A stretch of 64,000 nucleotides of DNA, taken from assembly GCF_009730915.1 (NCBI RefSeq), contig NC_052490.1, positions 32,488,625 through 32,552,624 of the forward strand. The letters are read 5' to 3'. This document shows positions 10,583-60,878 of this stretch, one piece after another. The DNA comes from Dioscorea cayenensis subsp. rotundata. Lineage: Eukaryota; Streptophyta; Magnoliopsida; Dioscoreales; Dioscoreaceae. The position numbers were made by a program, and so were the translations under genes. Each line of letters begins with the position of its first letter. The stretch's first letter is position 1. The notes under the pieces were generated by a model. It did not search any database and was not told where the DNA came from. It was given only the letters and a program-made list of their open reading frames with translations.

Positions 10583-11582
10583 NNNNNNNNNNNNNNNNNN
10601 NNNNNNNNNNNNNNNNNNNNNNNNNNNNNNNNNNNNNNNNNNNNNNNNNNNNNNNNNNNNNNNNNNNNNNNNNNNNNNNNNNNNNNNNNNNNNNNNNNNN
10701 NNNNNNNNNNNNNNNNNNNNNNNNNNNNNNNNNNNNNNNNNNNNNNNNNNNNNNNNNNNNNNNNNNNNNNNNNNNNNNNNNNNNNNNNNNNNNNNNNNNN
10801 NNNNNNNNNNNNNNNNNNNNNNNNNNNNNNNNNNNNNNNNNNNNNNNNNNNNNNNNNNNNNNNNNNNNNNNNNNNNNNNNNNNNNNNNNNNNNNNNNNNN
10901 NNNNNNNNNNNNNNNNNNNNNNNNNNNNNNNNNNNNNNNNNNNNNNNNNNNNNNNNNNNNNNNNNNNNNNNNNNNNNNNNNNNNNNNNNNNNNNNNNNNN
11001 NNNNNNNNNNNNNNNNNNNNNNNNNNNNNNNNNNNNNNNNNNNNNNNNNNNNNNNNNNNNNNNNNNNNNNNNNNNNNNNNNNNNNNNNNNNNNNNNNNNN
11101 NNNNNNNNNNNNNNNNNNNNNNNNNNNNNNNNNNNNNNNNNNNNNNNNNNNNNNNNNNNNNNNNNNNNNNNNNNNNNNNNNNNNNNNNNNNNNNNNNNNN
11201 NNNNNNNNNNNNNNNNNNNNNNNNNNNNNNNNNNNNNNNNNNNNNNNNNNNNNNNNNNNNNNNNNNNNNNNNNNNNNNNNNNNNNNNNNNNNNNNNNNNN
11301 NNNNNNNNNNNNNNNNNNNNNNNNNNNNNNNNNNNNNNNNNNNNNNNNNNNNNNNNNNNNNNNNNNNNNNNNNNNNNNNNNNNNNNNNNNNNNNNNNNNN
11401 NNNNNNNNNNNNNNNNNNNNNNNNNNNNNNNNNNNNNNNNNNNNNNNNNNNNNNNNNNNNNNNNNNNNNNNNNNNNNNNNNNNNNNNNNNNNNNNNNNNN
11501 NNNNNNNNNNNNNNNNNNNNNNNNNNNNNNNNNNNNNNNNNNNNNNNNNNNNNNNNNNNNNNNNNNNNNNNNNNNNNNNNNN
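10583..11582. other. Assembly gap (1000 N)
   Basis: Exactly 1000 N, a placeholder of nominal size; real length unknown. Confidence 0.99.
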
Positions 11583-13066: not shown

Positions 13067-16000
13067 TCATAGCTTTAGGGAAGTATCTGGTCCTTTTGCA
13101 AGTCCAGCCGTCGCCTTTTGCACGAGAAACTCATTACAGTCAGCACCTTTGACGGTGAACTCCATTAAAAGCTCTTCAAATATACTCTTCAGCATGCGCT
13201 TGAAGGAGGAAGCGGATGACGCCTCAGAAAAAACATCCAAGAGCTCGGGGGAAGGGGATGATGTATCAGAAGGAGCATCAGGCAGCACATCTAAATTAGG
13301 ATTCCCAACCTTGGCACCCTGCATGTAAGCCCTACATGCAGCAAGTATAGCACGCCCTTTCTCACGAAAGTATCCAGAAACAAACACGTCAAAATGCTGC
13401 AACCATGAAGCAAAAATAAATGCAGATACAATAAAGGAAAGCCAGTCTGAGATTTGAAATGGTAATAAATGAGAATAATAAACTTACCAGTGGTGGTCTT
13501 CTCATTGTGTATAGCATTGTCTTGCAGGAATGCAGAAAGGTTTCCTCATTGTAGCTGCTGGATAAACGATCTCCATGAGAGGAATTCGCATATTGTTCAT
13601 ATCCAGGCTCGTTAAAATAAGGTGCTGCATTCAGAACAAGAGCTTGAATAGAGACAAGCACTTGCAGCATAGTAGAACTAGATGGATTCCACTTCTCACA
13701 GCCACTGCCAGGCCAAGTGTTCAGAAGACTCAGACAAACTTTCCCGCAAGCATACAAATTTGGATTAATTCGAAGCCCACCCGAGTGATAATGTGCAAGC
13801 TGCATGGAAGTGGAAAGATAAAAACCAACAATTATATAACAAAAGAGATAGAAAAACAATTCAACCAAAACATACCGGTGGTGAATGGGGATAATTTGAT
13901 TGGAAGCAGATGTCAAAGAAGAAAAGACCATCGTGATAAGGAGTTCCAGCAGGACCTATGATGAGAGCCCTAAGAAGATCCATTCTATCTTCATAAACTC
14001 GAACAAATATATTCTCTATGAAAGCCAAACAAAAAACCAAAGACAAATTTTAGAAAAGCATATAAAGGACTCCGAATAGACTGCAAAATGATGGTATGTA
14101 TCCCTTAAATGACTATGGCATGTGAAAGGCAATATGGCAAATGAGATCAAAAATATTTTTCAAACAAAACTTCTTGTAAAGGTGAAAAATTCATAAGGCC
14201 ACACAACCAAAATACCAGAAGATTGGTATTCCAAGCATTTGCCAGACCAAAAGTTAAAATCCTGTTGTTCTGCATAAAAAGCTAAAATCTACACAACCTA
14301 AATTAGTAACAAATATTCAGATAATAAAGCTATAAAGAATGCAACTATGAAGAACATGGAGAATTCGATCCTGGATCAAGATGAATGATAAAGAATCAAT
14401 CTAGGCCGCATTGTTCCTGATAATACAAGGGGGGCATCAAATAAGTATAGCAAATACGCAACAAAAAAGAATGGTCTGGATTTATGCAGAAACTATACTT
14501 ACCAGGTAAATCTTTCTCTAAGACCTTCCACTCCGACTGGATTCTCTTCGCCCATTCTTTTGGTGGCTGTCATTTGTCCCAGCAGGTTTTAGTTATTAAA
14601 GTATTACGGAAAAAAAAACATGAGAAGCTTATGACAAAACTACCTTCTTTACTGCAGATGTTCCTCCATCATCAGACTTTGGACAGGCGAAGTAATGATC
14701 TGAGCTATCTTGCACAGTATCAAATTGCTTAAAGGCTTTATATTTCCGTTCAATTTCATCATCAGTATTCTCTTTTTTGGCTCTAGTTGACCTTACATCA
14801 TGCTTCTGCAACCATGACACAGAAGCTTCCACCCCTGCAGGCAGGTCCAGGTCATCAAGTTTTGCAGCCAAACTAGAATTAAGGTCATTGTCCGTCAAAT
14901 AGTTCTCATAGGCAAAGTCCACATTATCATCTTCCACAAAGTCAAATTCATCATCTTCATATCCATCTGAGTTGTTAAAGTTGATCAAGTCCAGATCAGA
15001 ACTTCCTGGGATATCTGGCACAGTAACATCATCCTTCCAGACTTTGTATGTGCTTGATCCAATAAGCTCAGTAGTCAAAGCATCCTAGTCAAAAAGAGAA
15101 GAAAAGGGAAAATGAAAATCCATAATGGTGAATTGGTAATCTAAAGAGTACATGCAACCTCTAAAGAATTTAATTCTTTAACATGAAGAACTGCTATTTA
15201 CCTTTGTCATGTTTTGCCAATCTTCAGCATATGCCACTGGCTGCTTATTCTTTTGATCTGGAATATTATCCCCAACAATTCCATCTGGATCATCTTCACC
15301 ATCAGAGCTGATCACGTCATGAGGTACCTAGAATAACAGGAAAAATCATGAGTAAAGGAACACTTACTATTCAAGTTTTGATTAAATTTACTGATAAAAT
15401 AAGCAGTCTAAGTGGCACAGAAGAGCCTAGAAATGCAAAAACTCATTAATCTTGGAAGGGCATGCGACAAAATATTCAATAAAACTAACACAGGCATCTG
15501 ACAAAATATTCACTGCATCAAGCACGGGCATGCCGCATGCGACAAAATATTGAATACAATTAGTAGAGGAATGCAGCAACATATTGAATACAACTAACAA
15601 GGGCATGCAGCAAAAACATTCAATACAACTAACAAGGGCATGTGAAAAAATATTCAATACAAGTAACACGGGCATGCGACAAAAATATTCAATACAGCTA
15701 GAAAGGGCGTGTGACAAAATATTCAATGAAACTAGCATACGCACACGACAAAACATTTAATAAAACTAGCGCTTCAGAAAATAATTGACATCAGCAAGTG
15801 ACATGAGCTATTTCAAAAACGGCAAACCCTAACTTTAATGCTTACAGACAACAACATAAATAACTCAAGCCCTTACCACATATATGTAAACTTCACAAAT
15901 GCGGAATTATGCTCAAATTTGGTACAAAAACCTCATTCCTGTGATAGCTATAAATGAGAAAGTAAAGTTTCAAAAACTTTCTTCCAACGCGCACCCAGAT

Positions 16001-17320: not shown

Positions 17321-17644
17321 GGGTGTGTTTGTTTGGGTGTATTTGGTTTTACATGTAAAACCAAATACTTTACTTTATGAAATTCATTGTTTGTTTGAGT
17401 CAGTATTTAGAATCTCGATGTAATTGGGATTACATCACGATAGACTTTTTTGATGTATTTGGTTTCTGCCCGATCGGGCGTAGAAACCAAATCCCTGAGA
17501 TTAAAACCAAATGTATATATATAAATACATGCATACATACACATACATATACATTTATATATTTATATAAACATATACAGGTACTTTTACACATATACAT
17601 ATACATACTCATATACATATATGTATATATACATATAGTTATAC

Positions 17645-17700
<56 letters not shown>

Positions 17701-18284
17701 TCATATACATATTTTTACACATACATATATATCCATATATGTATATGTATATATGCACATACATATATGTATTATGTATACATATACTTATACATATATA
17801 TATATATACTCGTATACATATATGTATATGTATATACATATACTTATACAGCTATATATATACTTATATATGTATATGTATATACATATATATACATACA
17901 TATACATGTACTTATACCGATATATATTTATATACATATATATATATATACATATACATGTACTTATACAAATATATATATACTCATATACATATATGTA
18001 TATATACACACACATATATATATATATGTATGTATATTTATACATATATATACTCATATACATATATACATATATGCATATATACACACATATACACATG
18101 CATTTTCCAATTACAGATTTACAAATCCTTTCAAACAAACATAAAATTTTATAATACAGTAATTTCAGTTACATCTAACCAAACACAAGATTTGACTGCA
18201 CTGTATTTTGAAAACCAAAGATTTCTAATTACATTGTAATTAGAAATCCACTGCATTTAGAATTACATCCAACCAAACGCCCCC
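17321..18284. mobile_element. Foldback/MITE-like element loaded with TATA-type repeats
   Basis: The left end GGGTGTGTTTGTTTGGGTG and the reverse complement of the right end, GGGGGCGTTTGGTTGGATG, are imperfect inverted repeats of a kind common in plant MITEs. Inside each end are further palindromes: GGTTTCTGCCCGATCGGGCG with its partner at about 17460-17490, and TTTCTAATTACATTGTAATT with its partner at about 18220-18247. The middle (about 17515-18100) is an expanded TATATACA/CATATA repeat. I found no clean target-site duplication, so superfamily and exact ends are open. It lies just upstream of E2 gene A. Confidence 0.55.
17515..18100. repeat. Complex (TA)n/(TACA)n microsatellite array
   Basis: Nearly 600 bp of alternating TATA, CATA and TACA with recurring longer phrases such as CTCATATACATATATG and CTTATACA about every 50-70 bp. 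All long open frames across it read as Y, I, H and T repeats on both strands and are artefacts. Confidence 0.93.
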
Positions 18285-19810: not shown

Positions 19811-22624
19811 CTAAGTAAATGGAAAAGCACCATTAATTACACCTAAGAAATCAGACATTTCAGCAGGAGCAAGTGAAGTGCCTGGTGGCATAGCAATGGG
19901 AAAGCCAGGGAAATTCCATGGAGCATTTGTTTGAGGATCTGTCAATGGCCCTGCTGGAAACATTGGCATGGGCATAAACGATGACGGTTGGGGTAGCGCG
20001 GCAGCCGTCCACGCCATTGGCAGTTGCGGCAGAGCTGATTGCAGTGGCTTGTCTGTGCCATTCATCTCAGCAACACAAACCTGCTCACAATCAACTCCTT
20101 TTGTCATGAACTCTTTCCGAAGATCTTGAAACAGAGTTTTCAGGGAGGATTTGAATTGTGGTGGGCAGCTCTCGTCTCGCTTGCCAGCACAGCCGACCAG
20201 AGCACCTTCCATATAAGACTTACAAGCTAACAGAATAGCAATTCCCTTGTTGCGAAAATGCTCAGTAACAAAGTCCTCAAAGTGCTGCACCAAATAATAC
20301 TGTTAGCAAACAGTGTAAAATATGTGATAGTAAGGGTGTAGTGTAATTCATATACTTTCGGTGGTCTCCTGAGGGAGTACAGCATTGTTCGACAGGAACT
20401 CAGGAAGGTCTCCCGATTGTAAGCAATTGAACTCTCCTGTCCCTTCTTTGTGTTAGCTAGACGTGGGAATCCGGGTTCATTGAAGTAGGGCTTTGAGTTC
20501 AGAATCAGAGCTTGAATAGAAACCAAGACTTGTAGCATGGTCGATTTTGAAGGTTTCCACAACTCACAGCCACTTCCACTCCAGGTGTTAAGAAGGCTAA
20601 GACAGACTTTGCCATTAGCATACAAGTTTGGATTGAGTCGAAGCCCTCCAGAGTGGTAATAAACAACCTGCACAACAACACAGAACAGGCTCTAAGTGTC
20701 CATTCTATGAAGAATAAGAAATAAACCTCAATCATGTACCGGAGGTGACTGGGGATAATTGGCAGGAAATTGAATATCAAAGAAGAAGAGGCCATCATGA
20801 TAAGGAGTTTCATCGGGTCCTATAATAACAGCCCTGAGAATGTCCATTCTGTCTTCAAAGGCCCTGACAAATATCGTTTCTGTTCAAATAAAGAAAGAGT
20901 AAGAATATAAAAGCGATATCAGTTAAAATAAAGGCCAACACAATTAAGTTCTGAAGTACATTTCCGCCATTACTTGCATTTGGTTATGCATATCAATTAC
21001 AACATATCAAAAACAATGCTGTAATCAGAGGATTAAAAGATCGAGAGACAATAAAACCAGGACCACTGCTTCCTGGCGAATCTTGTCAAATGGGAGTATC
21101 ATTAGAAAATTCAATGCCTACTCCACATAATTGATACATGAATGCAACAATTTCTACTGCAGAAAAAGACTCACCAGGTAAATTATTCTCGAGAACCTTC
21201 CACTCATTCTGAATACTTTTTGCCCAATTTCTTGTTCTCTGATGTTTTCAATTACAAAAAAACAAGGAGAATTGGAAGAATAAAAAAAGAAGAAAAAGGT
21301 AAATAAAGTAGCAACTAATTTGACGACACAAATAATTTGAGAAAAACTTACAACAACTGTTGCTTTAGAATAGTAGTGATCTGAATGATCACAAACAAGA
21401 TCAAATTGCTTAAATGCTTTAACATTAATGTCAATTTCTTCTCCAACCACCTCCTTCTGCTCGCAGGGCACAGTACTTTCAGGTGCAAGATTCGGCTATA
21501 ATGGAATTAGCAGCCTCCACCCTGGAGGCAAGTCCATCATCAAATTTAACACATAAAAGCAGTTGCCATCTCTATGGTACACTTAGCAACATTAATGTAA
21601 TTTATCTGATTATCTTCATATCAGTACAATCATAAGAACAACTATCACATAAAAAATAGCTTCAGAACCAAATAAAAACATTCCTGAATTTCTAATTAAC
21701 AATTAACACATGGAACTTAAGTCCAGAACCAATCTAAAAATCAGACAAGCAAATCTCCATGTTTGAATCATCAAATTGGTAGATAAAGCATTACAACAAT
21801 TACTTCTTGAATCATGCTGCATTTTTTTTTCAAACACAGATACAGTATATAAGCATAATATCACATTTTGAGCAGAGAACTTCATAAACACAAGTGGATT
21901 ACACCTTTATCTCCTCTTCATCATCGTTCACATATACCACAGGCTGCTTTTTCTTGTGATCTGAAGAGTTTGCACTAATAAATACCACTGAATCTGTATC
22001 AGATTCACCGCCTGATTCAATTTGTATTACCTCCTTTTGAACCATCTGAAATAGCACAAACAATCAACATGCAAACTCCAGATTAAACAATGATAATACC
22101 TAAATATTTTTCAACATGAAAAAGGGGAAAAAAATATCAGTAAAGAAAAAAAAAAAGCATCTAAGAGAAAAATCATTCACACTTCAAACTTTAAGCTAAA
22201 CAATAATCAAAATACCAAATTAAAAAAGCATTTTTTTGTATTAATTAAAAACCTTAAAATACAACAGGTAGGAGAATAACACCCCTAAAACAGGATCATC
22301 TAACAAAAAGAAACAACTTTCAGAACCACAAAAACCAAAATTAAAAAAAAAAAGAAAAGAAATCCAATTAAAGAAAAGGAATCAAAAGAAAGAAAAGCTT
22401 TAATTAACCTCGCTGCGTTTGCGTCTGCGCTTCTTCTTGGAGGATAAGGAAGAGAACTGGGTATCGACGGTACGATGATTGTGCGCCGAAGTGGTCGACA
22501 TTCCAGACGATTGCGACGAAACAAAGGGATGCTGCCCGTCGTCGGCGTTGATGGCGAGGGTTAAGGATGGATGGGAGATGGAACTAGGCATTGGGGAGAC
22601 GTCGGAGGGAAAACGAAGAGGCAT
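19811..22624 (-). CDS. PHO2-family ubiquitin-conjugating enzyme E2 (UBC25/UBC26-like), gene B of three
   Basis: Seven coding exons: 22624-22409, 22045-21905, 21495-21352, 21238-21175, 20879-20740, 20667-20356, 20284-19811; 496 residues. The N-terminus is Ser/Pro-rich and ends exon 1 with a basic KKKRRRKR, a likely nuclear signal; then FKQFDLVCDHSDHYYSK and the UBC core with LRLNPNLY and catalytic C257 in GKVCLSLLNTW. Unlike gene A and PHO2, it ends in an added tail of about 75 residues rich in Pro, Met, Ala and Phe. The first ATG of exon 1 is used; exon 2 also begins with ATG. Exon sizes 64, 140 and 312 match genes A and C exactly. The biochemical role as an E2 is known for the family; the substrate is not. 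Confidence 0.9.
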
Positions 22625-23513: not shown

Positions 23514-26500
23514 TTACATCGAGCAAGAACTTTTGCTAGCATCAGAGACTCCCTTCACTTGGTTCAGGAAGTGTCCACAATCAATGCCTTTATCAGTGAA
23601 GCCTGACACGAGCTTCGGGAAAAGCTTTGCAAGCATGAGCTTAAAACCAGTAGAAGAGCCCTTGAGAATTTCACCTACAGGCTTCTCAGTGTTAAAATCA
23701 GAACCAATTTGCGCACCGTCCATGTAAGCTTTGCAGGCATGCAGGATAGAATGTGATCGACAGGCAAAATGCTCCGATACAAGTGACTCGAAATGCTGCA
23801 GAATTTAGAATAAACAGATTAGTGAGCTTCAACTGTGAGTGCTACTGATTTATATGTCTTCGAGTTGGCAACTACCTTAGGTGGGTTGTTTAAGACGTAT
23901 AGCATTGATTTAAGCGAGAGAAGGAAGGCATTCTCGTTGTAGGTGATGGAGTTCTTCTCGCCCTCGATTTTCCCGACCTGTTTGTCGTAACCAGCCTCGT
24001 TAAAATATGGTTTGTCATTCAGAACAAGAGCCTGAAGTGACAAAAGCACTTGTAGAATGGTGGAGCTTTCTGGATTCCATGCTTCAGTCCCAGTGCCGGT
24101 CCATGTGTTGAGAAGGCTGAGGCAAACCTTGCCCGATTCATATAGGTTCGGATTCAGTCGGAGACCACCAGAGTTATAGTGAACCAGCTGCAAATAAATA
24201 ATTTATCTCAGGTAGTTAAATTTTGATAGTGATAATGCAATTTCATTTCTAGGGAAACTACACTATTACATAAACTGAGGAATGCTTCAATTCAAATGTT
24301 TGTAGATGCATTGTCATTTATATAGAACACGAAATTGTCAATAATATAAGTTTTGATCATCCACGAAAGAACTGTGATTAAATACATAAGAACTCACAGG
24401 TGGTTCATGAGGATAATCAGAAGGAAGGCAAATATCAAAGAAGAAGAGGCCATCATGGTAAGGGGTTCCAGGTGCTCCAATGATGGCTGCTCTCAAGAGA
24501 TCAACCCTGTCCTCATAAACTCGAACATATATACTATCTGTCAAATTCAAAGCATACACTTCATTATTCAATATAATAGCAAGTTATATAAATTTGGAGG
24601 CTGCAAAATGTCATGGAAAAAGAATATATGTGAGAAAATTAAGGAGATCAATGGCAATTAACCATCTAATTCAAGACAAAGAAATTTGGACAATTGATAG
24701 CCCTATTGAACATATATAAATGACGTAAAAACTTGTAGAAATACTATTCAATATTTTTACCACTGGTACTTTGTAAAGTGGAAGATGGTCACAGCACTAG
24801 TTGCACCACAAAAGAAAATGTTTTATTTGCAATAACACTGACAAAAGATAATTATTAGAGAGGAGAAAGAACAAACCAGGTAAATTGCTCTCCAAGATGC
24901 TCCACTCTTGATGTAGTTTCTTCAGCCAACCACTTTTTACCTGTGAAGATAATTAAAACTAGTGATTAATCTTCACAATTGGCAAGATGCTTGGAAAAAT
25001 ACAATAGCAAATATGAAGAATGTTAGTTTCTTTTTACCTGGGATATTGCTAATCTTTTATCATTGCTCATCACAAAATGATGATCAGAATAGTCATCAAC
25101 AACAACGAATTTCTCAAAGCCTCCTGCTTTATCATTGCCTGGTAAAACGGGTGGGCATTCTTTCTGTTCAATTTTTGCTTGTATTGACGGGTTCAAATTT
25201 GCCATTGACAGGTCACCCACATCCGGTTGAGGTTCTTCAGTTGACAATTCATGCCACTGGAGAAAACACCCAAAATCAGTACCAACTTTTAAAGCAGTAT
25301 TCATAAATTAAGAAGGGCAACTTATTGAGAAAATGTAATAAGCAAAAGATTACTGTGCCAGGAAGAGAAGTGGAGCCACGGGAACTAAACAGGCTTTTTG
25401 CAACATTTGTAAGGAAACAAATCGCTGCACGAGGAAACAAAAGAGCCCCAGAATCCCAAGCATCCTGCCAATCATAACTGGAATCATTTGCAACCTTAAT
25501 AAACACCTCAAACACAATTTGTGCCCCTCATTCACAAAGAAGGCATGTGTGGATGAAATAGAACAAGTACATTACATCTTGTAGAGAGATTTCTTTGACC
25601 TTATCTTTCTTCCGCCAGGATAGTGTTTCCTGCTCCACCATTTGTTCACTGATATTTTCAGAAATCACTTCCACATTATCTGTTGGTGCTGTGGGTGGAT
25701 CGTCAAGCCTATCTAAACCATAAATCTCTGAAGGATGGACCTAAGGCAAAAAGCAAAAAAGATCAATTAATTACATAAATAAAAATCCAAAGTTGATGAA
25801 ATTTATATTGAATTTTTAGTTTAAAGCATGTAGAAAAATTAATTTTATATAGTTATATATCCAATGGAAAAAATTAAAAAATTGAAACAAAAAGGTACAG
25901 TGAAGTCAAGCATTTGATTCAATACTTTTTTAGAACAAGTAAAAAAAAATAATGAAAAGAAACCATATGCTTACCTTGGATGTGAGACCACTAGCCCATC
26001 TCACTTCTACACCTTCTGTCTTAAAACCAATAACATTCCCTATACATGACAGATAGGCTGTAGCATTCTCATCATAACAACCAACTGATGTATCATGAAG
26101 GTCCTTTCCTGAAAGAGGTGAACTACTGATTCTAGCTTTCCCATGCAAAGGATGCAGTTGCCTTGGCCCATCAGGTTGACTATCAGGAAAACTCTTTGCA
26201 GAACTCTCAAAATGGGGAGGCAACTTAAATATAACATCACCAATACAATAAGAGAAGTCTGGATGCTCAATCAATTCATAAACACTTACCGTTTCCTCAT
26301 CTGGTTCTGCCATAATATTTTCATTTAGATTAAGGTCAGGAACCATCCATTTCACTTTCACAGTTCGCTCTTGTGCATCCACACTTTTCACAATCCCAAC
26401 ACGTTGGCTACCTGGAAGCACCACATCGTCTGATGTAACCTTCTCCAACACAAACTGTTCAGGCCAAAAGTCATGATCACCAACATTATTTACAGGATGA

Positions 26501-27462
26501 AGTGTCTGTGGATCTAAGCCAACTGACAGATCTCCACTTTGCCAGAGGACATCAACCTTGGTCCTTGTTCTTGCAATAACTAGCATCTGTCTTAAGTCTT
26601 GCCTATTCATTCCCAAATTACTCTGCATTTTAGAAACATATTGAGGGCCATCACAATAAGTCGATTCTTGAAGCACCCTTTTCTGATTATCAAAGTCATC
26701 ATGTGGAAGCATACACCAATCTCCAATTTGCCAGTTAGCGTAAGGAAAACAGGATAATGATGTGAGAACTTGTGGATTTTGAAGATGATGAGGCATGGAA
26801 GGGAGGGAATCACTGCCTGTCATGACAGATGCAATCCAATTCACATGCACCAATCCTACTTCTACGTTGCAAATAATACCTTCATTTTGAGTCTCCTTCC
26901 ATGGGCCACACAACCATCTCGAAGGTTTAGACATCACAGGAAGCTTAATACGAACATGCTGACCAGCATAGTATGGAAATGGTGCATCTTCATGTAAGCT
27001 AGGAGAAACAGGTGTTAGAACTTCTCTGCCTCCAGTCATTACTTCACACTTTGACCCATCACTATACAGAATTGTGACCCTATCAAATAATTTTGTAATC
27101 CTTCCGAGCCAAGGGCCGTGGACAACATAATCTCCAATTGCAAAGGTCTGAATCTTTAGCAGTTTCTTGCTGTTAATGCCTTTTATTAGCTCACCAGAAC
27201 TTGTTTCCAAGTCTACAATCATATCAACATCCAAAATCCGGCCTAACAGCCCTGATGGATCTGAGATGGAGCATACAATATCACCATGTACAAATCCTCT
27301 TTCAAATGCAAGAAAATTGTCAATTTTTCCAATGCTATCATCCAGACTTGACAAGATGTTCTGTGCATGGCCAGAATATGAAGATTCACGGTCATCTTGA
27401 TCCTCACTATCAGTGTCTTCACTGTAGCTCGCACTATCCAAGTCACTAACAAACACATCCAT
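23514..27462 (-). CDS. PHO2: PHO2 / UBC24: E2 ubiquitin conjugase of phosphate homeostasis, gene C of three
   Basis: Eight coding exons: 27462-25975, 25740-25576, 25494-25354, 25256-25038, 24940-24877, 24537-24398, 24187-23876, 23795-23514; 936 residues, close to Arabidopsis PHO2 at about 907. The N-terminus is acidic (SDLDSASYSEDTDSEDQDD) and is followed by ERGFVHGDIV and several SH3-like blocks of the UBE2O type (GDYVVHGPWLGRI, YYAGQHVRIKL, HDFWPEQFVLEK). The middle has PRAAICFLTNVAKSLF and the UBC core ends the protein, with LNPNLY and catalytic C761 in GKVCLSLLNTW. PHO2 acts on endomembranes and directs degradation of PHO1 and PHT1 proteins. The start ATG lies 10 nt after an acceptor at 27472. 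The leader upstream carries the miR399 sites listed separately, which settles PHO2 over UBC23. Confidence 0.95.
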
Positions 27463-27975
27463 ACTAAAATGTCTGCAATTAGTAATATGGAGCATTATGT
27501 TATCAATTTAAGTTGCAATTGCCAAACACTGCATCAAATAAGGCAGTCAAACTACTTTACTCACTCTGGTAGGAACCACAATGGACTGGGTGTGTACAGC
27601 TTAGAAATCAAGGTTGTTTTCTACTCCTACCACAAAGATGCAGATAAAATGAAAGAATGAGATACAAACTTAATTTAAGGGGAAAAAAGACAACAATTCA
27701 GGCTATATGTACTTTCAATACACACATTCATATAAAAATGAACAATAAGAACCTGGGGAGACTGAGAGATAGGTCATGCTTACTACCAAGTTGGATTACC
27801 TGATTATCCTTGCTGTAAAAGAAAGAAAGTATTATGGAATATACACCACCACGGTCAGGTTGTTTTCAAAATATATGAATCGATGGGATATAAGACCACC
27901 AATCTGATCACAATGTACAACCACTGGGTTGATACTTCCAATAAGATAACTTGCGCACAAAACCCTGAAACTTAA

Positions 27976-27996
27976 TGCCAAAGGAGAATTGCCCAG
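27976..27996 (-). promoter_or_regulatory. miR399 target site 7 (most 3' in the leader)
   Basis: The plus strand reads TGCCAAAGGAGAATTGCCCA then G; essentially a full match except near position 20. Confidence 0.92.
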
Positions 27997-28035
27997 ATAA
28001 CAGAACCAGAGTTAATCTGGAAAAGTCTCTGTAGC

Positions 28036-28056
28036 TGCCAAAGAAGATTTGCCCTA
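28036..28056 (-). promoter_or_regulatory. miR399 target site 6
   Basis: The plus strand reads TGCCAAAGAAGATTTGCCCT then A; changed at positions 9 and 21, so pairing just below the cleavage centre is weakened. Confidence 0.85.
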
Positions 28057-28085
28057 AACGCAAACTACAACCATTATTATAGATA

Positions 28086-28106
28086 TGCCAAAGGAGATCT
28101 GCCCCG
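28086..28106 (-). promoter_or_regulatory. miR399 target site 5 (best match)
   Basis: The plus strand reads TGCCAAAGGAGATCTGCCCC then G; only position 14 departs from the miR399d-like consensus. Confidence 0.93.
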
Positions 28107-28127
28107 CAGAGGGATTATTATTAGAAA

Positions 28128-28148
28128 TGCCAAAGGAGATATGCCCCA
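28128..28148 (-). promoter_or_regulatory. miR399 target site 4
   Basis: The plus strand reads TGCCAAAGGAGATATGCCCC then A; it differs from miR399 at about positions 14 and 21. Confidence 0.9.
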
Positions 28149-28168
28149 GAAGATGAAAAAAACCAAGT

Positions 28169-28188
28169 AGCCAAAGGAGGTTTCCCAG
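28169..28188 (-). promoter_or_regulatory. miR399 target site 3, degenerate
   Basis: The plus strand reads AGCCAAAGGAGGTTTCCCAG: first base changed, one change at position 12, and one base missing in the 3' half. Confidence 0.65.
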
Positions 28189-28218
28189 TAAGGAAATCGC
28201 TTTCACAAATTACTTCCT

Positions 28219-28239
28219 TGCCAAAGGAGATTTCCACAA
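28219..28239 (-). promoter_or_regulatory. miR399 target site 2, 3' half degenerate
   Basis: The plus strand reads TGCCAAAGGAGATTTCCACA. Pairing to miRNA positions 1-15 is complete; the rest has decayed. Confidence 0.72.
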
Positions 28240-28336
28240 CAAAGCAGAATATACCACATCCAAAAGATGATCCTTGAATTGACAGTTTATTCAACAGGAT
28301 ACCTCTACTTTGAAGAAGAAAATTTTCTATTCTCAA

Positions 28337-28357
28337 TGCCAAAGGAGATTCGCCCCA
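28337..28357 (-). promoter_or_regulatory. miR399 target site 1 (most 5' in PHO2 transcript)
   Basis: The plus strand reads TGCCAAAGGAGATTCGCCCC then A, so the minus-strand transcript is complementary to miR399. It differs from the miR399 consensus at about positions 15 and 21. Confidence 0.9.
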
Positions 28358-29670
28358 AGTTTCAATTGGAATGTTGAAAGCAACCCAAGGAATATCCTAA
28401 AAAGGTTGGAACAAAGTATATATGATTTCACAGGTCAACAGCAAAAACAGCAAGTTCCTCCCCACTCCAAATGGACATCCTGCATGGGTAGAAAGTTCAT
28501 ATTCACCTACCCTGTAATTTTAGCTATATCCACCAAAAAAAGTTCTTTATATATAACCACTGATAAGAAAATACCGACAAACAGCTCAAGTGCTTAGGCA
28601 GCCCACCATGTCCAATGACAGCGATCTGCAACAAGATTAAGAACATATAATTCTAAGAAACTTCAGTTTGATTGTCAAATATCCAATAATATAGTACATT
28701 TTTTTCGGAGCTAGCAGAAGTAAAATTAAAAAAAAAAAAAAGAAAACATAATTCAGTGAGATTTAGCCACAACACATGACCAGAATGCCTGATTACTCCA
28801 TACTTAAGATACTTATTGCAAAACCTAATTAGAGAATTAATTAATTAAAAACACAGATTGATTGAATTTATCAGAAGAAGAAGGAATTCCTCAAAGCCCG
28901 TAAATAGACCGAATAAGCAGTCAGTGACCAGGAAACTAAAAAAAAGTGTTCTTTCTCTAACTATCATTGAATAAAGAACCACAAAACTTGTTTCCCCAGT
29001 AAACCCTCCAACACGGTTATTTTTAGTCCAAACTAAAATAGTCAAAAAAAGGTACAACATATCACACTTCAATCAAAGATAAAATATTACAATCGACCAA
29101 TAGAGGCAAAACAAACGATCTCCTCAGTCCTCGGCCGAGAAAAATCACATCTCTAAGTGCTGAAAACCCAAACTAACATGGCAAACGAAAAGCAAGGTAT
29201 ATGACAAAGATCAGAAGTAGGCCACATCGCAGAGAAGCTATCCCAATGAGCAACCAATGCAAATTTAAGTAATGACTAAAAGCAGATACCCTCCTCAACA
29301 CATGAAATGAAAAACAAAAATCTCATCTTGAATCCAAACAACTCCAAAGCAATTTCTCCAAGAACACTAAAGATAGAAATCGAAAAAGTAAGGCAAGACC
29401 AAATACACAATCCGAATCAATCAATGAATAAAAATCAAATCTTTACGTAAATAAAATACCGGAAATCACCTGAAACTAAAAATCCAAGAACCCATCTTCC
29501 CACAATCAATTAATAAGAAATCAAAAGTCATCTCCAAACTCCATTTCAATCCCCTACACTCCCGGAAATCAAAAAGTCATCCGCCCACATTCAAAAAATC
29601 CCAAGAACGCACAACCTGTCCGTCGACGAGAACCAAGTCAAATCAAAATAAACAAACCATATTCGCATAC

Positions 29671-29874
29671 CTTAAACCAAATTTCCCCCCAATTGGCGCA
29701 GAAACTCCAAAGCCGAAAAGAGAGAATGGAGGGAGGGAGTTTAGGAGAAGACGCCCGAACCCTCCCCTAAACCCCACCCCTCATCCCATTTCCAACCTTC
29801 ACCAACCATCTGAATAAACCCTGATCTCGTCCCTGTCCCTCTTCCTCCCCCTCTCGGCTCCTTCTCCACCACCA

Positions 29875-29908
<34 letters not shown>

Positions 29909-42324: not shown

Positions 42325-43324
42325 NNNNNNNNNNNNNNNNNNNNNNNNNNNNNNNNNNNNNNNNNNNNNNNNNNNNNNNNNNNNNNNNNNNNNNNNNNNN
42401 NNNNNNNNNNNNNNNNNNNNNNNNNNNNNNNNNNNNNNNNNNNNNNNNNNNNNNNNNNNNNNNNNNNNNNNNNNNNNNNNNNNNNNNNNNNNNNNNNNNN
42501 NNNNNNNNNNNNNNNNNNNNNNNNNNNNNNNNNNNNNNNNNNNNNNNNNNNNNNNNNNNNNNNNNNNNNNNNNNNNNNNNNNNNNNNNNNNNNNNNNNNN
42601 NNNNNNNNNNNNNNNNNNNNNNNNNNNNNNNNNNNNNNNNNNNNNNNNNNNNNNNNNNNNNNNNNNNNNNNNNNNNNNNNNNNNNNNNNNNNNNNNNNNN
42701 NNNNNNNNNNNNNNNNNNNNNNNNNNNNNNNNNNNNNNNNNNNNNNNNNNNNNNNNNNNNNNNNNNNNNNNNNNNNNNNNNNNNNNNNNNNNNNNNNNNN
42801 NNNNNNNNNNNNNNNNNNNNNNNNNNNNNNNNNNNNNNNNNNNNNNNNNNNNNNNNNNNNNNNNNNNNNNNNNNNNNNNNNNNNNNNNNNNNNNNNNNNN
42901 NNNNNNNNNNNNNNNNNNNNNNNNNNNNNNNNNNNNNNNNNNNNNNNNNNNNNNNNNNNNNNNNNNNNNNNNNNNNNNNNNNNNNNNNNNNNNNNNNNNN
43001 NNNNNNNNNNNNNNNNNNNNNNNNNNNNNNNNNNNNNNNNNNNNNNNNNNNNNNNNNNNNNNNNNNNNNNNNNNNNNNNNNNNNNNNNNNNNNNNNNNNN
43101 NNNNNNNNNNNNNNNNNNNNNNNNNNNNNNNNNNNNNNNNNNNNNNNNNNNNNNNNNNNNNNNNNNNNNNNNNNNNNNNNNNNNNNNNNNNNNNNNNNNN
43201 NNNNNNNNNNNNNNNNNNNNNNNNNNNNNNNNNNNNNNNNNNNNNNNNNNNNNNNNNNNNNNNNNNNNNNNNNNNNNNNNNNNNNNNNNNNNNNNNNNNN
43301 NNNNNNNNNNNNNNNNNNNNNNNN
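42325..43324. other. Assembly gap (1000 N)
   Basis: Exactly 1000 N. It hides the promoter side of the hydrolase gene (-) and the start of the gene at 43325 (+). Confidence 0.99.
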
Positions 43325-55411: not shown

Positions 55412-57226
55412 TTATGGGCTTAGCCCCATTCCCCTCGACGCCTCGGCTATCATTTGTCTCGATAAGCCTTTAGTCAGGCAATCTGCTAGATTTAGCTCTG
55501 ACTTTATGTAATCAATGCTCACAACGTTGTGCTTCAGATGTCTCCAAACTGACTTGTGGCGGATCCGCATATGCCTGTTCATTTTATCATTAGTACTTTC
55601 ACGTTTGCACAGTTCAATAGCAGATTTAGAATCACAATGTATAGCAATAGGAGGCATAGGAGAACACATAACAGGAATCTCAGAAAGTAAATTTCTAATC
55701 CACTCAGCCTCTGTACATGTAGAATCAAGCGCAATCAATTCAGCTTCCATGGTGCTCCTAGCATTGAGCTTCTGCTTAGCAGATTTCCATTGGATAGCTC
55801 CCCCACCAAGTAAAAATACTTGGCCTGAGGTTGATTTAAGATCTACCGAGTCAGATATCCAGTTGGCATCTGTGTATCCCTCTACCACACTAGGGAATCC
55901 AGAGTACCTCAGTCCAAAAGTCATAGAACCTTTTAGGAATCTGAGAACCCTCTCAAGAGCAAACCAATGTTCTTGATTTGGGTTACTGGTATATCTACTC
56001 AGTCTAGATACGGAATACGCGATGTCAGGTCTAGTTCTGTTCGATAGATACATCAGAGATCCTATGATCTGAGCATAGAGATCCTGATTTACAGGTTCAC
56101 CTTTGTTTTTCTTAAGGTGTACACTGGGGTCAAAAGGTGTAGCAACAGATTTGCAATCCAGATATCCGTATTTCTCCAACACTTTCTCAGTGTAATGAGA
56201 TTGGGATAATGTGATGCCATATACTGATCTCGTAAGCTTGATTCCTAGGATAACATTAGCTTCTCCTAGATCTTTCATATCAAACTTACTGCTCAGAAAG
56301 TTCTTGACATCACAGACAAGATTAAGATCAGAAGCAAAGATAAGCAGATCATCAACATACAAGCACACAATAACACATTTGCCATCTACTAATTTACTGT
56401 AAACACACCTGTCATAGTTGTTTACAACAAATCCATAAGAGATGATTGTAGAGTCAAACTTGGCATGCCACTGCTTTGGGGCTTGCTTCAGTCCATAAAG
56501 AGATTTTACAAGTTTGCAGACCTTGTGCTCTTGTCCAGGAATAACAAAGCCTTCAGGTTGCTCCATGTAAATTTCTTCCTCTAAATCACCATTTAAGAAA
56601 GCAGTCTTTACATCCATTTGATGGATTTCAAGACTGAAAGCAGAGGCAAGTGCTATAAGGATCCTAATGGTGGTGGTGCGAGCAACTGGTGAGTAGGTGT
56701 CAAAGTAATCAAGTCCCTCTTTCTGTTTGAACCCTTTTGCAACTAACCTGGCCTTGAACTTTTCAATGGATCCATCGGGTCTCAGCTTCTTCCTGAAGAC
56801 CCATTTACAGCCCAAAGGTTTACTCCCAAGAGGCAGGGAAGTAAGTATCCAGGTGTGGTTACTCATGATTGAGTGGTACTCATCATCTACAGCTTCTTTC
56901 CAAAAAACTGAATCAACAGAAGCCATAGCCTCTTGATAAGTGGTAGGAGTATCCTCAATCATGAAGGTGACAAAATCATCACCTAGGTTCCTTTCCACTC
57001 TACCTCTTTTGCTTCTTCTAGGTTCCTGTACAGGGATAGGAACTGATCCAGAAGTAGAGCTAGAGGTCAGAGGTACAGAAGGACTGGGATTGGAGGTTGA
57101 TCTCAGAGGGAAGATGTTCTCAAAGTAGACAGCATCTCTAGCTTCAATGATAGTGTTTCTAGTTATTTCACTCACCTCTGAGTTAATAACTAGGAATCTT
57201 CCAACATTGCTATCTAGAGCATACCC
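55412..57226 (-). pseudogene. Copia reverse transcriptase - RNase H region (open frame, no own start)
   Basis: An uninterrupted frame of about 600 codons runs from just after a TAG at 57227-57229 to the stop at 55412. It holds the integrase C-terminal stretch, the RT domain ([39 protein letters not shown], and the active-site YVDD within LYVDDLLIF), and RNase H ([28 protein letters not shown]). In an intact element this is part of one polyprotein; here no start codon begins it and an in-frame stop cuts it from the integrase segment, so it would not be made from this copy as read. Confidence 0.85.
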
Positions 57227-59878: not shown

Positions 59879-60878
59879 NNNNNNNNNNNNNNNNNNNNNN
59901 NNNNNNNNNNNNNNNNNNNNNNNNNNNNNNNNNNNNNNNNNNNNNNNNNNNNNNNNNNNNNNNNNNNNNNNNNNNNNNNNNNNNNNNNNNNNNNNNNNNN
60001 NNNNNNNNNNNNNNNNNNNNNNNNNNNNNNNNNNNNNNNNNNNNNNNNNNNNNNNNNNNNNNNNNNNNNNNNNNNNNNNNNNNNNNNNNNNNNNNNNNNN
60101 NNNNNNNNNNNNNNNNNNNNNNNNNNNNNNNNNNNNNNNNNNNNNNNNNNNNNNNNNNNNNNNNNNNNNNNNNNNNNNNNNNNNNNNNNNNNNNNNNNNN
60201 NNNNNNNNNNNNNNNNNNNNNNNNNNNNNNNNNNNNNNNNNNNNNNNNNNNNNNNNNNNNNNNNNNNNNNNNNNNNNNNNNNNNNNNNNNNNNNNNNNNN
60301 NNNNNNNNNNNNNNNNNNNNNNNNNNNNNNNNNNNNNNNNNNNNNNNNNNNNNNNNNNNNNNNNNNNNNNNNNNNNNNNNNNNNNNNNNNNNNNNNNNNN
60401 NNNNNNNNNNNNNNNNNNNNNNNNNNNNNNNNNNNNNNNNNNNNNNNNNNNNNNNNNNNNNNNNNNNNNNNNNNNNNNNNNNNNNNNNNNNNNNNNNNNN
60501 NNNNNNNNNNNNNNNNNNNNNNNNNNNNNNNNNNNNNNNNNNNNNNNNNNNNNNNNNNNNNNNNNNNNNNNNNNNNNNNNNNNNNNNNNNNNNNNNNNNN
60601 NNNNNNNNNNNNNNNNNNNNNNNNNNNNNNNNNNNNNNNNNNNNNNNNNNNNNNNNNNNNNNNNNNNNNNNNNNNNNNNNNNNNNNNNNNNNNNNNNNNN
60701 NNNNNNNNNNNNNNNNNNNNNNNNNNNNNNNNNNNNNNNNNNNNNNNNNNNNNNNNNNNNNNNNNNNNNNNNNNNNNNNNNNNNNNNNNNNNNNNNNNNN
60801 NNNNNNNNNNNNNNNNNNNNNNNNNNNNNNNNNNNNNNNNNNNNNNNNNNNNNNNNNNNNNNNNNNNNNNNNNNNNNN
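59879..60878. other. Assembly gap (1000 N)
   Basis: Exactly 1000 N, starting inside the right Copia LTR. Repeats of this kind often break assemblies. Confidence 0.99.

What the first reader, a model, noticed from the sequence alone, without database searches (positions are those of the whole stretch)
27976..28357. Seven miR399-complementary sites in the leader of PHO2
Seven separate matches to the miR399 sequence lie in one leader exon, all in the orientation that makes the PHO2 mRNA the target. Arabidopsis PHO2 is described with five. Four sites are near-perfect, one has a central-half change, and two have decayed 3' halves, so the array shows both expansion and erosion. Spacing is mostly 41-60 nt.
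Basis: partly seen in the sequence, partly recalled or inferred. Interest (0 to 1): 0.85.

Follow-up and report, generated by a model that had tools for sequence, protein, structure and literature searches.

The report
miR399 target array in PHO2 leader
The leader of a plant phosphate-control gene (PHO2) carries seven matches to the phosphate-starvation microRNA miR399, a well-known regulatory array that here is one or two sites longer than in the plants usually described.

Summary
Seven miR399-complementary sites lie at 27976-28357, all targeting the minus strand, in the predicted second leader exon of an intact PHO2/UBC24-type gene (ATG at 27462). Six are far beyond chance; the seventh (28169-28189) is weak and supported mainly by its place in the array. 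The same genome has at least five predicted MIR399 hairpins and two IPS1/At4-like decoy candidates. Its one detected PHO2 paralogue shows no site with fewer than 6 mismatches. The module is complete and ordinary. 'Seven against five' overstates the novelty: passages report 4 sites (N. benthamiana, Salvia), 5 (Arabidopsis, rice, poplar, bean, wheat, Medicago) and 5 or 6 for barley, depending on who counts. Here six sites pair well and one poorly. Two details change: site 28036 has only a G:U wobble, and site 28169 is better read as one missing base plus two mismatches than as a ruined 3' half, while site 28219 scores well against a miR399 of this genome. 'Expansion and erosion' was not shown, because no related species was compared. 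Most likely reading: ordinary miR399-guided silencing of PHO2 under low phosphate. No RNA data were available.

The parts
28337..28357 (-). miR399 site A (most 5' in the mRNA); best score 2.0 with a miR399 of this genome
28219..28239 (-). miR399 site B; two mismatches in the 3' part, best score 2.5
28169..28189 (-). miR399 site C; one-base deletion opposite miRNA position 16, mismatches at positions 1 and 12, best score 5 (7 without a bulge): probably weak or not cut
28128..28148 (-). miR399 site D; best score 2.5
28086..28106 (-). miR399 site E; best score 1.5
28036..28056 (-). miR399 site F; G:U wobble at miRNA position 9, best score 2.5
27976..27996 (-). miR399 site G (nearest the start codon, 186 nt away in the predicted spliced leader); best score 1
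29671..29880 (-). predicted untranslated exon 1 (transcription start guessed, donor GTATGC)
   Evidence: splice signals only
27800..28625 (-). predicted untranslated exon 2, which holds all seven sites
   Evidence: splice signals only; same layout as reported for bean and wheat PHO2 (passages)
23514..27462 (-). PHO2/UBC24-type coding region, 925-930 aa depending on one uncertain splice border, eight predicted exons, no internal stop

Best explanation
This is the miR399 target array in the 5' leader of the PHO2 (UBC24) gene of a flowering plant. Under phosphate starvation miR399, which in other plants is switched on by PHR1, pairs with the sites; AGO1 cuts the leader (and may block translation); PHO2 protein falls; and phosphate transporters are no longer destroyed. 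The two IPS1/At4-like RNAs of this genome would soak up miR399 and soften the response. Shown here: sites, gene, predicted hairpins, decoy candidates. Inferred from other plants: transcription, cleavage, phosphate response. Six sites are expected to be used and site C hardly at all.
For: Six sites far above chance and all seven in the target orientation. Complete UBE2O-type E2 gene downstream: tSH3-B, SH3-B, SH3-C and UQ_con domains above cut-off. Predicted layout with two untranslated exons and the sites in the second, as reported for bean and wheat. Five own-genome predicted MIR399 hairpins (C14 x2, C5 x2, C15), each locus with GNATATNC (P1BS-type) motifs, enrichment not tested. Two decoy candidates on C1. 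Six of seven sites score 2.5 or less with at least one own miR399. The one detected paralogue, on C2 at 41% identity in its best stretch, has no site with fewer than 6 mismatches in the 9.9 kb examined.
Against: No RNA, small-RNA or degradome data. The leader exon borders rest on splice signals alone. No named plant PHO2 protein was compared, so orthology rests on architecture, site array and contrast with the paralogue. The predicted fold does not mark the sites as specially open: mean unpaired 0.29-0.44 against 0.36 for the leader. The C15 miR399 form pairs poorly with all seven sites (4 to 9).
Confidence: 0.92

Rival explanations
1. A refinement rather than a contradiction: the array is a real PHO2 target array, but some sites (C, perhaps B) are not cut and are remnants or passive binders, so that effectively there are the usual five or six sites.
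For: Site C scores 5 even with a bulge allowed. In barley only 2 of 5 predicted sites appeared in the degradome, and in N. benthamiana 2 of 4 were confirmed cut.
Against: Site B scores 2.5 with the C14 miR399. A gapped barley site (site 2) is one of the two that are cut; but there the miRNA lacks a base relative to the target, the reverse of site C.
Confidence: 0.5
2. Also compatible with the main reading: a lineage-specific gain of sites by local duplication, kept because it steepens or strengthens silencing.
For: Seven sites against four to six in the passages read. The 3' flanks of D and E, 42 nt apart, share 11 of 12 aligned nt.
Against: The D/E flank match is AT-rich and weak (p 0.015 uncorrected; 3 of 42 comparisons fell below 0.05, about what chance gives). 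No related leader was compared. Strict scoring gives six sites, the number counted for barley in PMC4919326.
Confidence: 0.25
3. The leader transcript serves as a decoy for miR399 or as a source of phased secondary siRNAs, rather than only as a target.
For: In Arabidopsis ski2 mutants siRNAs arise 5' of the PHO2 array. Many sites in one RNA could titrate miR399.
Against: The best pairings need no central bulge of the IPS1 type. Site spacing shows no significant 21-nt register (p 0.15). Separate decoy candidates exist.
Confidence: 0.05
4. Chance similarity or a repeat, not a regulatory array.
For: None for the array as a whole; site C alone is within reach of chance.
Against: Expected 0.01 consensus matches in the window against 6 seen. 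In the whole 584-Mb genome the ten matches to the 21-base miR399d pattern at up to 3 mismatches are 5 array sites, 4 hairpin-forming loci and 1 other.
Confidence: 0.01

Closest known systems
PHO2 (UBC24) miR399 array of Arabidopsis, rice, poplar, bean, wheat and Medicago (five sites)
   Same: Same gene type, similar leader position (about 200-400 nt before the start codon in Arabidopsis; 186-547 nt in the predicted leader here), same orientation, and sites in the second untranslated exon as in bean and wheat.
   Different: Seven matches instead of five; the 5'-most is 118 nt from its neighbour.
Barley HvPHO2 (five or six sites)
   Same: More than five sites by lenient counting; a gapped site; sites differ in quality.
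   Different: One more site here; the gap is on the target side here and on the miRNA side in barley; which sites are cut is unknown here.
PHO2 of N. benthamiana and Salvia miltiorrhiza (four sites)
   Same: Same module.
   Different: Fewer sites.

Membership tests
PHO2 / UBC24 | UBE2O-like N-terminal SH3-type domains followed by a C-terminal E2 (UBC) domain | tested here: met
   Pfam PF23046, PF23043, PF23044 and PF00179 above cut-off; best of the 60 solved chains listed (of 271 matched) are UBE2O-type E2s
PHO2 / UBC24 | Intact reading frame with the E2 catalytic cysteine region | tested here: met
   925-930 aa frame without internal stop; motif GKVCLSLLNTW present, identified as the active-site region from recall
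PHO2 / UBC24 | Several miR399 sites in the 5' leader, in an untranslated exon | tested here: met
   Seven sites, six of them by the strict consensus; exon by splice signals only
PHO2 / UBC24 | Distinct from the UBC23-like paralogue | tested here: met
   With the N-terminal 497 residues as query, only one other locus was found (C2, 41% and 36% identity in two stretches); the 9.9 kb examined there has no site with fewer than 6 mismatches; the name UBC23 is recalled
PHO2 / UBC24 | Clusters with named PHO2 proteins in a tree | not tested
   No collection of named plant proteins was at hand; no comparison was run, only an impression from recall
PHO2 / UBC24 | Promotes breakdown of phosphate transporters | not testable with these tools
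   needs mutants or biochemistry
miR399 target | Pairing score within the usual limit (up to 5 in PMC3645745, with a simpler score) with a miR399 of the same genome | tested here: met
   6 of 7 sites score 1-2.5; site C scores 5 with a bulge allowed and 7 without
miR399 target | Cleavage opposite miRNA positions 10-11 in low phosphate | not testable with these tools
   needs degradome or 5' RACE

The most novel reading that the evidence does not exclude
The array has grown to seven working sites that divide labour among miR399 forms: six sites pair best with the C14 form ending TTTGCCCAG, and the site nearest the start codon pairs best with the C5/C14 form ending ATTGCCCTG. PHO2 would then shut off more steeply, or in steps, as different MIR399 genes come on.
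Probability: 0.15. Interest if true: 0.4.

Novelty: new member of a known kind. Interest (0 to 1): 0.22.

Why it matters
PHO2 is the central brake on plant phosphate uptake. Natural differences in the number and quality of its miR399 sites are a test bed for the question why this gene has many sites when most plant microRNA targets have one. Here target, microRNA genes and decoy candidates were located in one genome. The finding adds one more site count to a known series; it does not change the picture.

Tried and rejected
Expansion by tandem duplication: 3 of 42 flank comparisons fell below p 0.05, about chance, with AT-rich or pyrimidine-rich matches. 21-nt phasing of the sites: not significant, p 0.15. 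Special accessibility of sites: none in the predicted fold. Rfam at gathering threshold gave nothing in the window. A short core pattern was badly chosen: it found only site C and was not used. Locus C8:6311830 (one of the 10 matches) and the loci on C13 and C21 (two of the 10 matches) did not put the match in a good hairpin arm and were dropped from the MIR399 count. A miR399 form with A at position 9, which would pair fully with site F there, was not found in this genome: the pattern allowed it and returned only site F itself and the C13 and C21 loci with such an A. Of the 36 matches to the decoy pattern (reversed-pattern control 7) three had 2 or fewer mismatches; only the two on C1 were looked at; the third (C15:10368532) and the 33 weaker ones were not examined. 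P1BS in the PHO2 leader: seen, not shown to be enriched.

Papers. Passages were read by term search in 15 papers: PMC10319397, PMC3645745, PMC3878733, PMC4919326, PMC6296076, PMC5758793, PMC10931670, PMC2268993, PMC4945926, PMC6918228, PMC4678812, PMC8860578, PMC12907439, PMC11891480 and PMC9965056; no paper was read whole. Of other papers only the search listing was seen. Bari et al. 2006 is not held. The text searches that could show a PHO2 with seven or more sites showed none in their listings or in the passages I read; one search listed 30 of 103 papers, and the 'seven' hits that I opened meant other things. Subscription journals are mostly not covered, so this does not show that none is in print.

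Full report
What is there. The window lies on contig C20 of a 584-Mb genome, a plant's by its gene content. A 19-base consensus at up to 3 mismatches finds six of the seven and nothing else (expected 0.01). In the whole genome the 21-base miR399d pattern at up to 3 mismatches gives ten matches: five array sites, four loci that fold as MIR399 hairpins, and one (C8) that does not.

The gene. Downstream on the minus strand a continuous frame of 925 to 930 codons can be read over eight predicted exons from the ATG at 27462 to the stop at 23514 (one internal splice border is uncertain by a few codons). It carries the UBE2O-type tSH3-B, SH3-B and SH3-C domains and a UQ_con domain, all above cut-off, and its closest solved relatives are UBE2O-type chains. 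Splice signals predict two untranslated exons, 29880-29671 (start guessed) and 28625-27800, and all seven sites fall in the second. Bean and wheat PHO2 are reported with the same layout (passages). In the predicted spliced leader the sites end 186 to 547 nt before the ATG; for Arabidopsis about 200-400 nt is reported (passage).

The partners. The genome holds two pairs of predicted MIR399 hairpins on opposite strands, on C14 (4334 minus, 5619 plus) and C5 (21504366 minus, 21506486 plus), and a fifth hairpin on C15 (18129703). This is a lower bound, since only two mature-sequence patterns were searched in full. All five loci have GNATATNC (P1BS-type) motifs within the 3 kb held around them, 2 to 5 each, against 15 in the whole 64-kb window; the two C14 stretches overlap, as do their motifs. 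Two loci on C1 that look near-identical over the 600 bases printed match an IPS1/At4-type decoy pattern at 1 and 2 mismatches. That pattern gave 36 matches in all against 7 for the reversed control; a third match at 2 mismatches, on C15, was not examined, so the decoys are candidates only.

The single sites. With a mismatch score that weighs positions 2-13 double and allows one bulge, the best scores against the three distinct mature forms of the four C14 and C5 loci are A 2.0, B 2.5, C 5, D 2.5, E 1.5, F 2.5, G 1. The C15 form scores 4 to 9. Site F's change is a G:U wobble at miRNA position 9. A miR399 with A there, fully matched at that position, is known from N. benthamiana, but no such form was found in this genome. 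Site C regains pairing at positions 17-21 if one miRNA base is bulged at position 16, but keeps mismatches at positions 1 and 12. A gapped barley site is cut, but there the spare base is in the target, not in the miRNA (passage). So six sites look usable and one doubtful.

Paralogue. A search with the N-terminal 497 residues gives the window gene and one diverged locus on C2 (41% and 36% identity in two stretches). The 9.9 kb examined there, about 6 kb of it upstream of the first match, has no miR399 site with fewer than 6 mismatches on either strand. In the window itself the two other E2-type gene regions, at 13-15 kb and 19.8-20.7 kb, have no match at 5 or fewer mismatches.

The array and its gene are confirmed. 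The claim that the array shows expansion and erosion is not: no relative was compared, the flank evidence for duplication is at about chance level, and counts in the passages read run from four to six, with barley given as five and as six in two papers. By lenient counting this one has seven; by strict scoring, six.

How it works. The best reading is the known one: miR399-guided cutting, and perhaps translational block, of PHO2 mRNA when phosphate is short. No step of that was observed here; it follows from work on other plants. Tests for something beyond it came back negative: no 21-nt register (p 0.15), no special openness of the sites. The interest is low to moderate: a clean, well-supplied example of a known module with a slightly long array.

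Noticed in passing
window 13067-15084 and 19811-20691, minus strand: Two further E2-type (UQ_con) gene regions lie downstream of PHO2 on the same strand, resembling UBC25/PFU-type genes by recall: a small tandem cluster of E2 genes. Neither region has a miR399 match with 5 or fewer mismatches.
   Followed up: partly
L007/L011 (C14:4334 and 5619) and L009/L010 (C5:21504366 and 21506486): Two MIR399 pairs on opposite strands, 1.3 and 2.1 kb apart, perhaps copies of one ancestral pair.
   Followed up: partly
L017 and L018 (C1:23857685 and C1:28295262), about 4.4 Mb apart: Two IPS1/At4-like loci that look near-identical over the printed 600 bases; the second has a base change opposite miR399 position 8, so it may be a weaker decoy.
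   Followed up: partly
window 28390-28397: A P1BS-type motif (GAATATCC) lies in the predicted leader exon about 32 nt upstream of site A; Medicago PHO2-B is reported with P1BS motifs in its 5' leader. May be chance.
   Followed up: no
window 10583-11582, 42325-43324, 59879-60878: Three runs of exactly 1000 N, either assembly gaps of fixed size or masked stretches.
   Followed up: no
window 55412-57226, minus strand: A copia-type (by recall) reverse transcriptase frame (RVT_2) of 604 codons without a stop.
   Followed up: no
window 17359-18239: A long TA-rich simple-repeat stretch that gives overlapping tyrosine/isoleucine frames on both strands.
   Followed up: no
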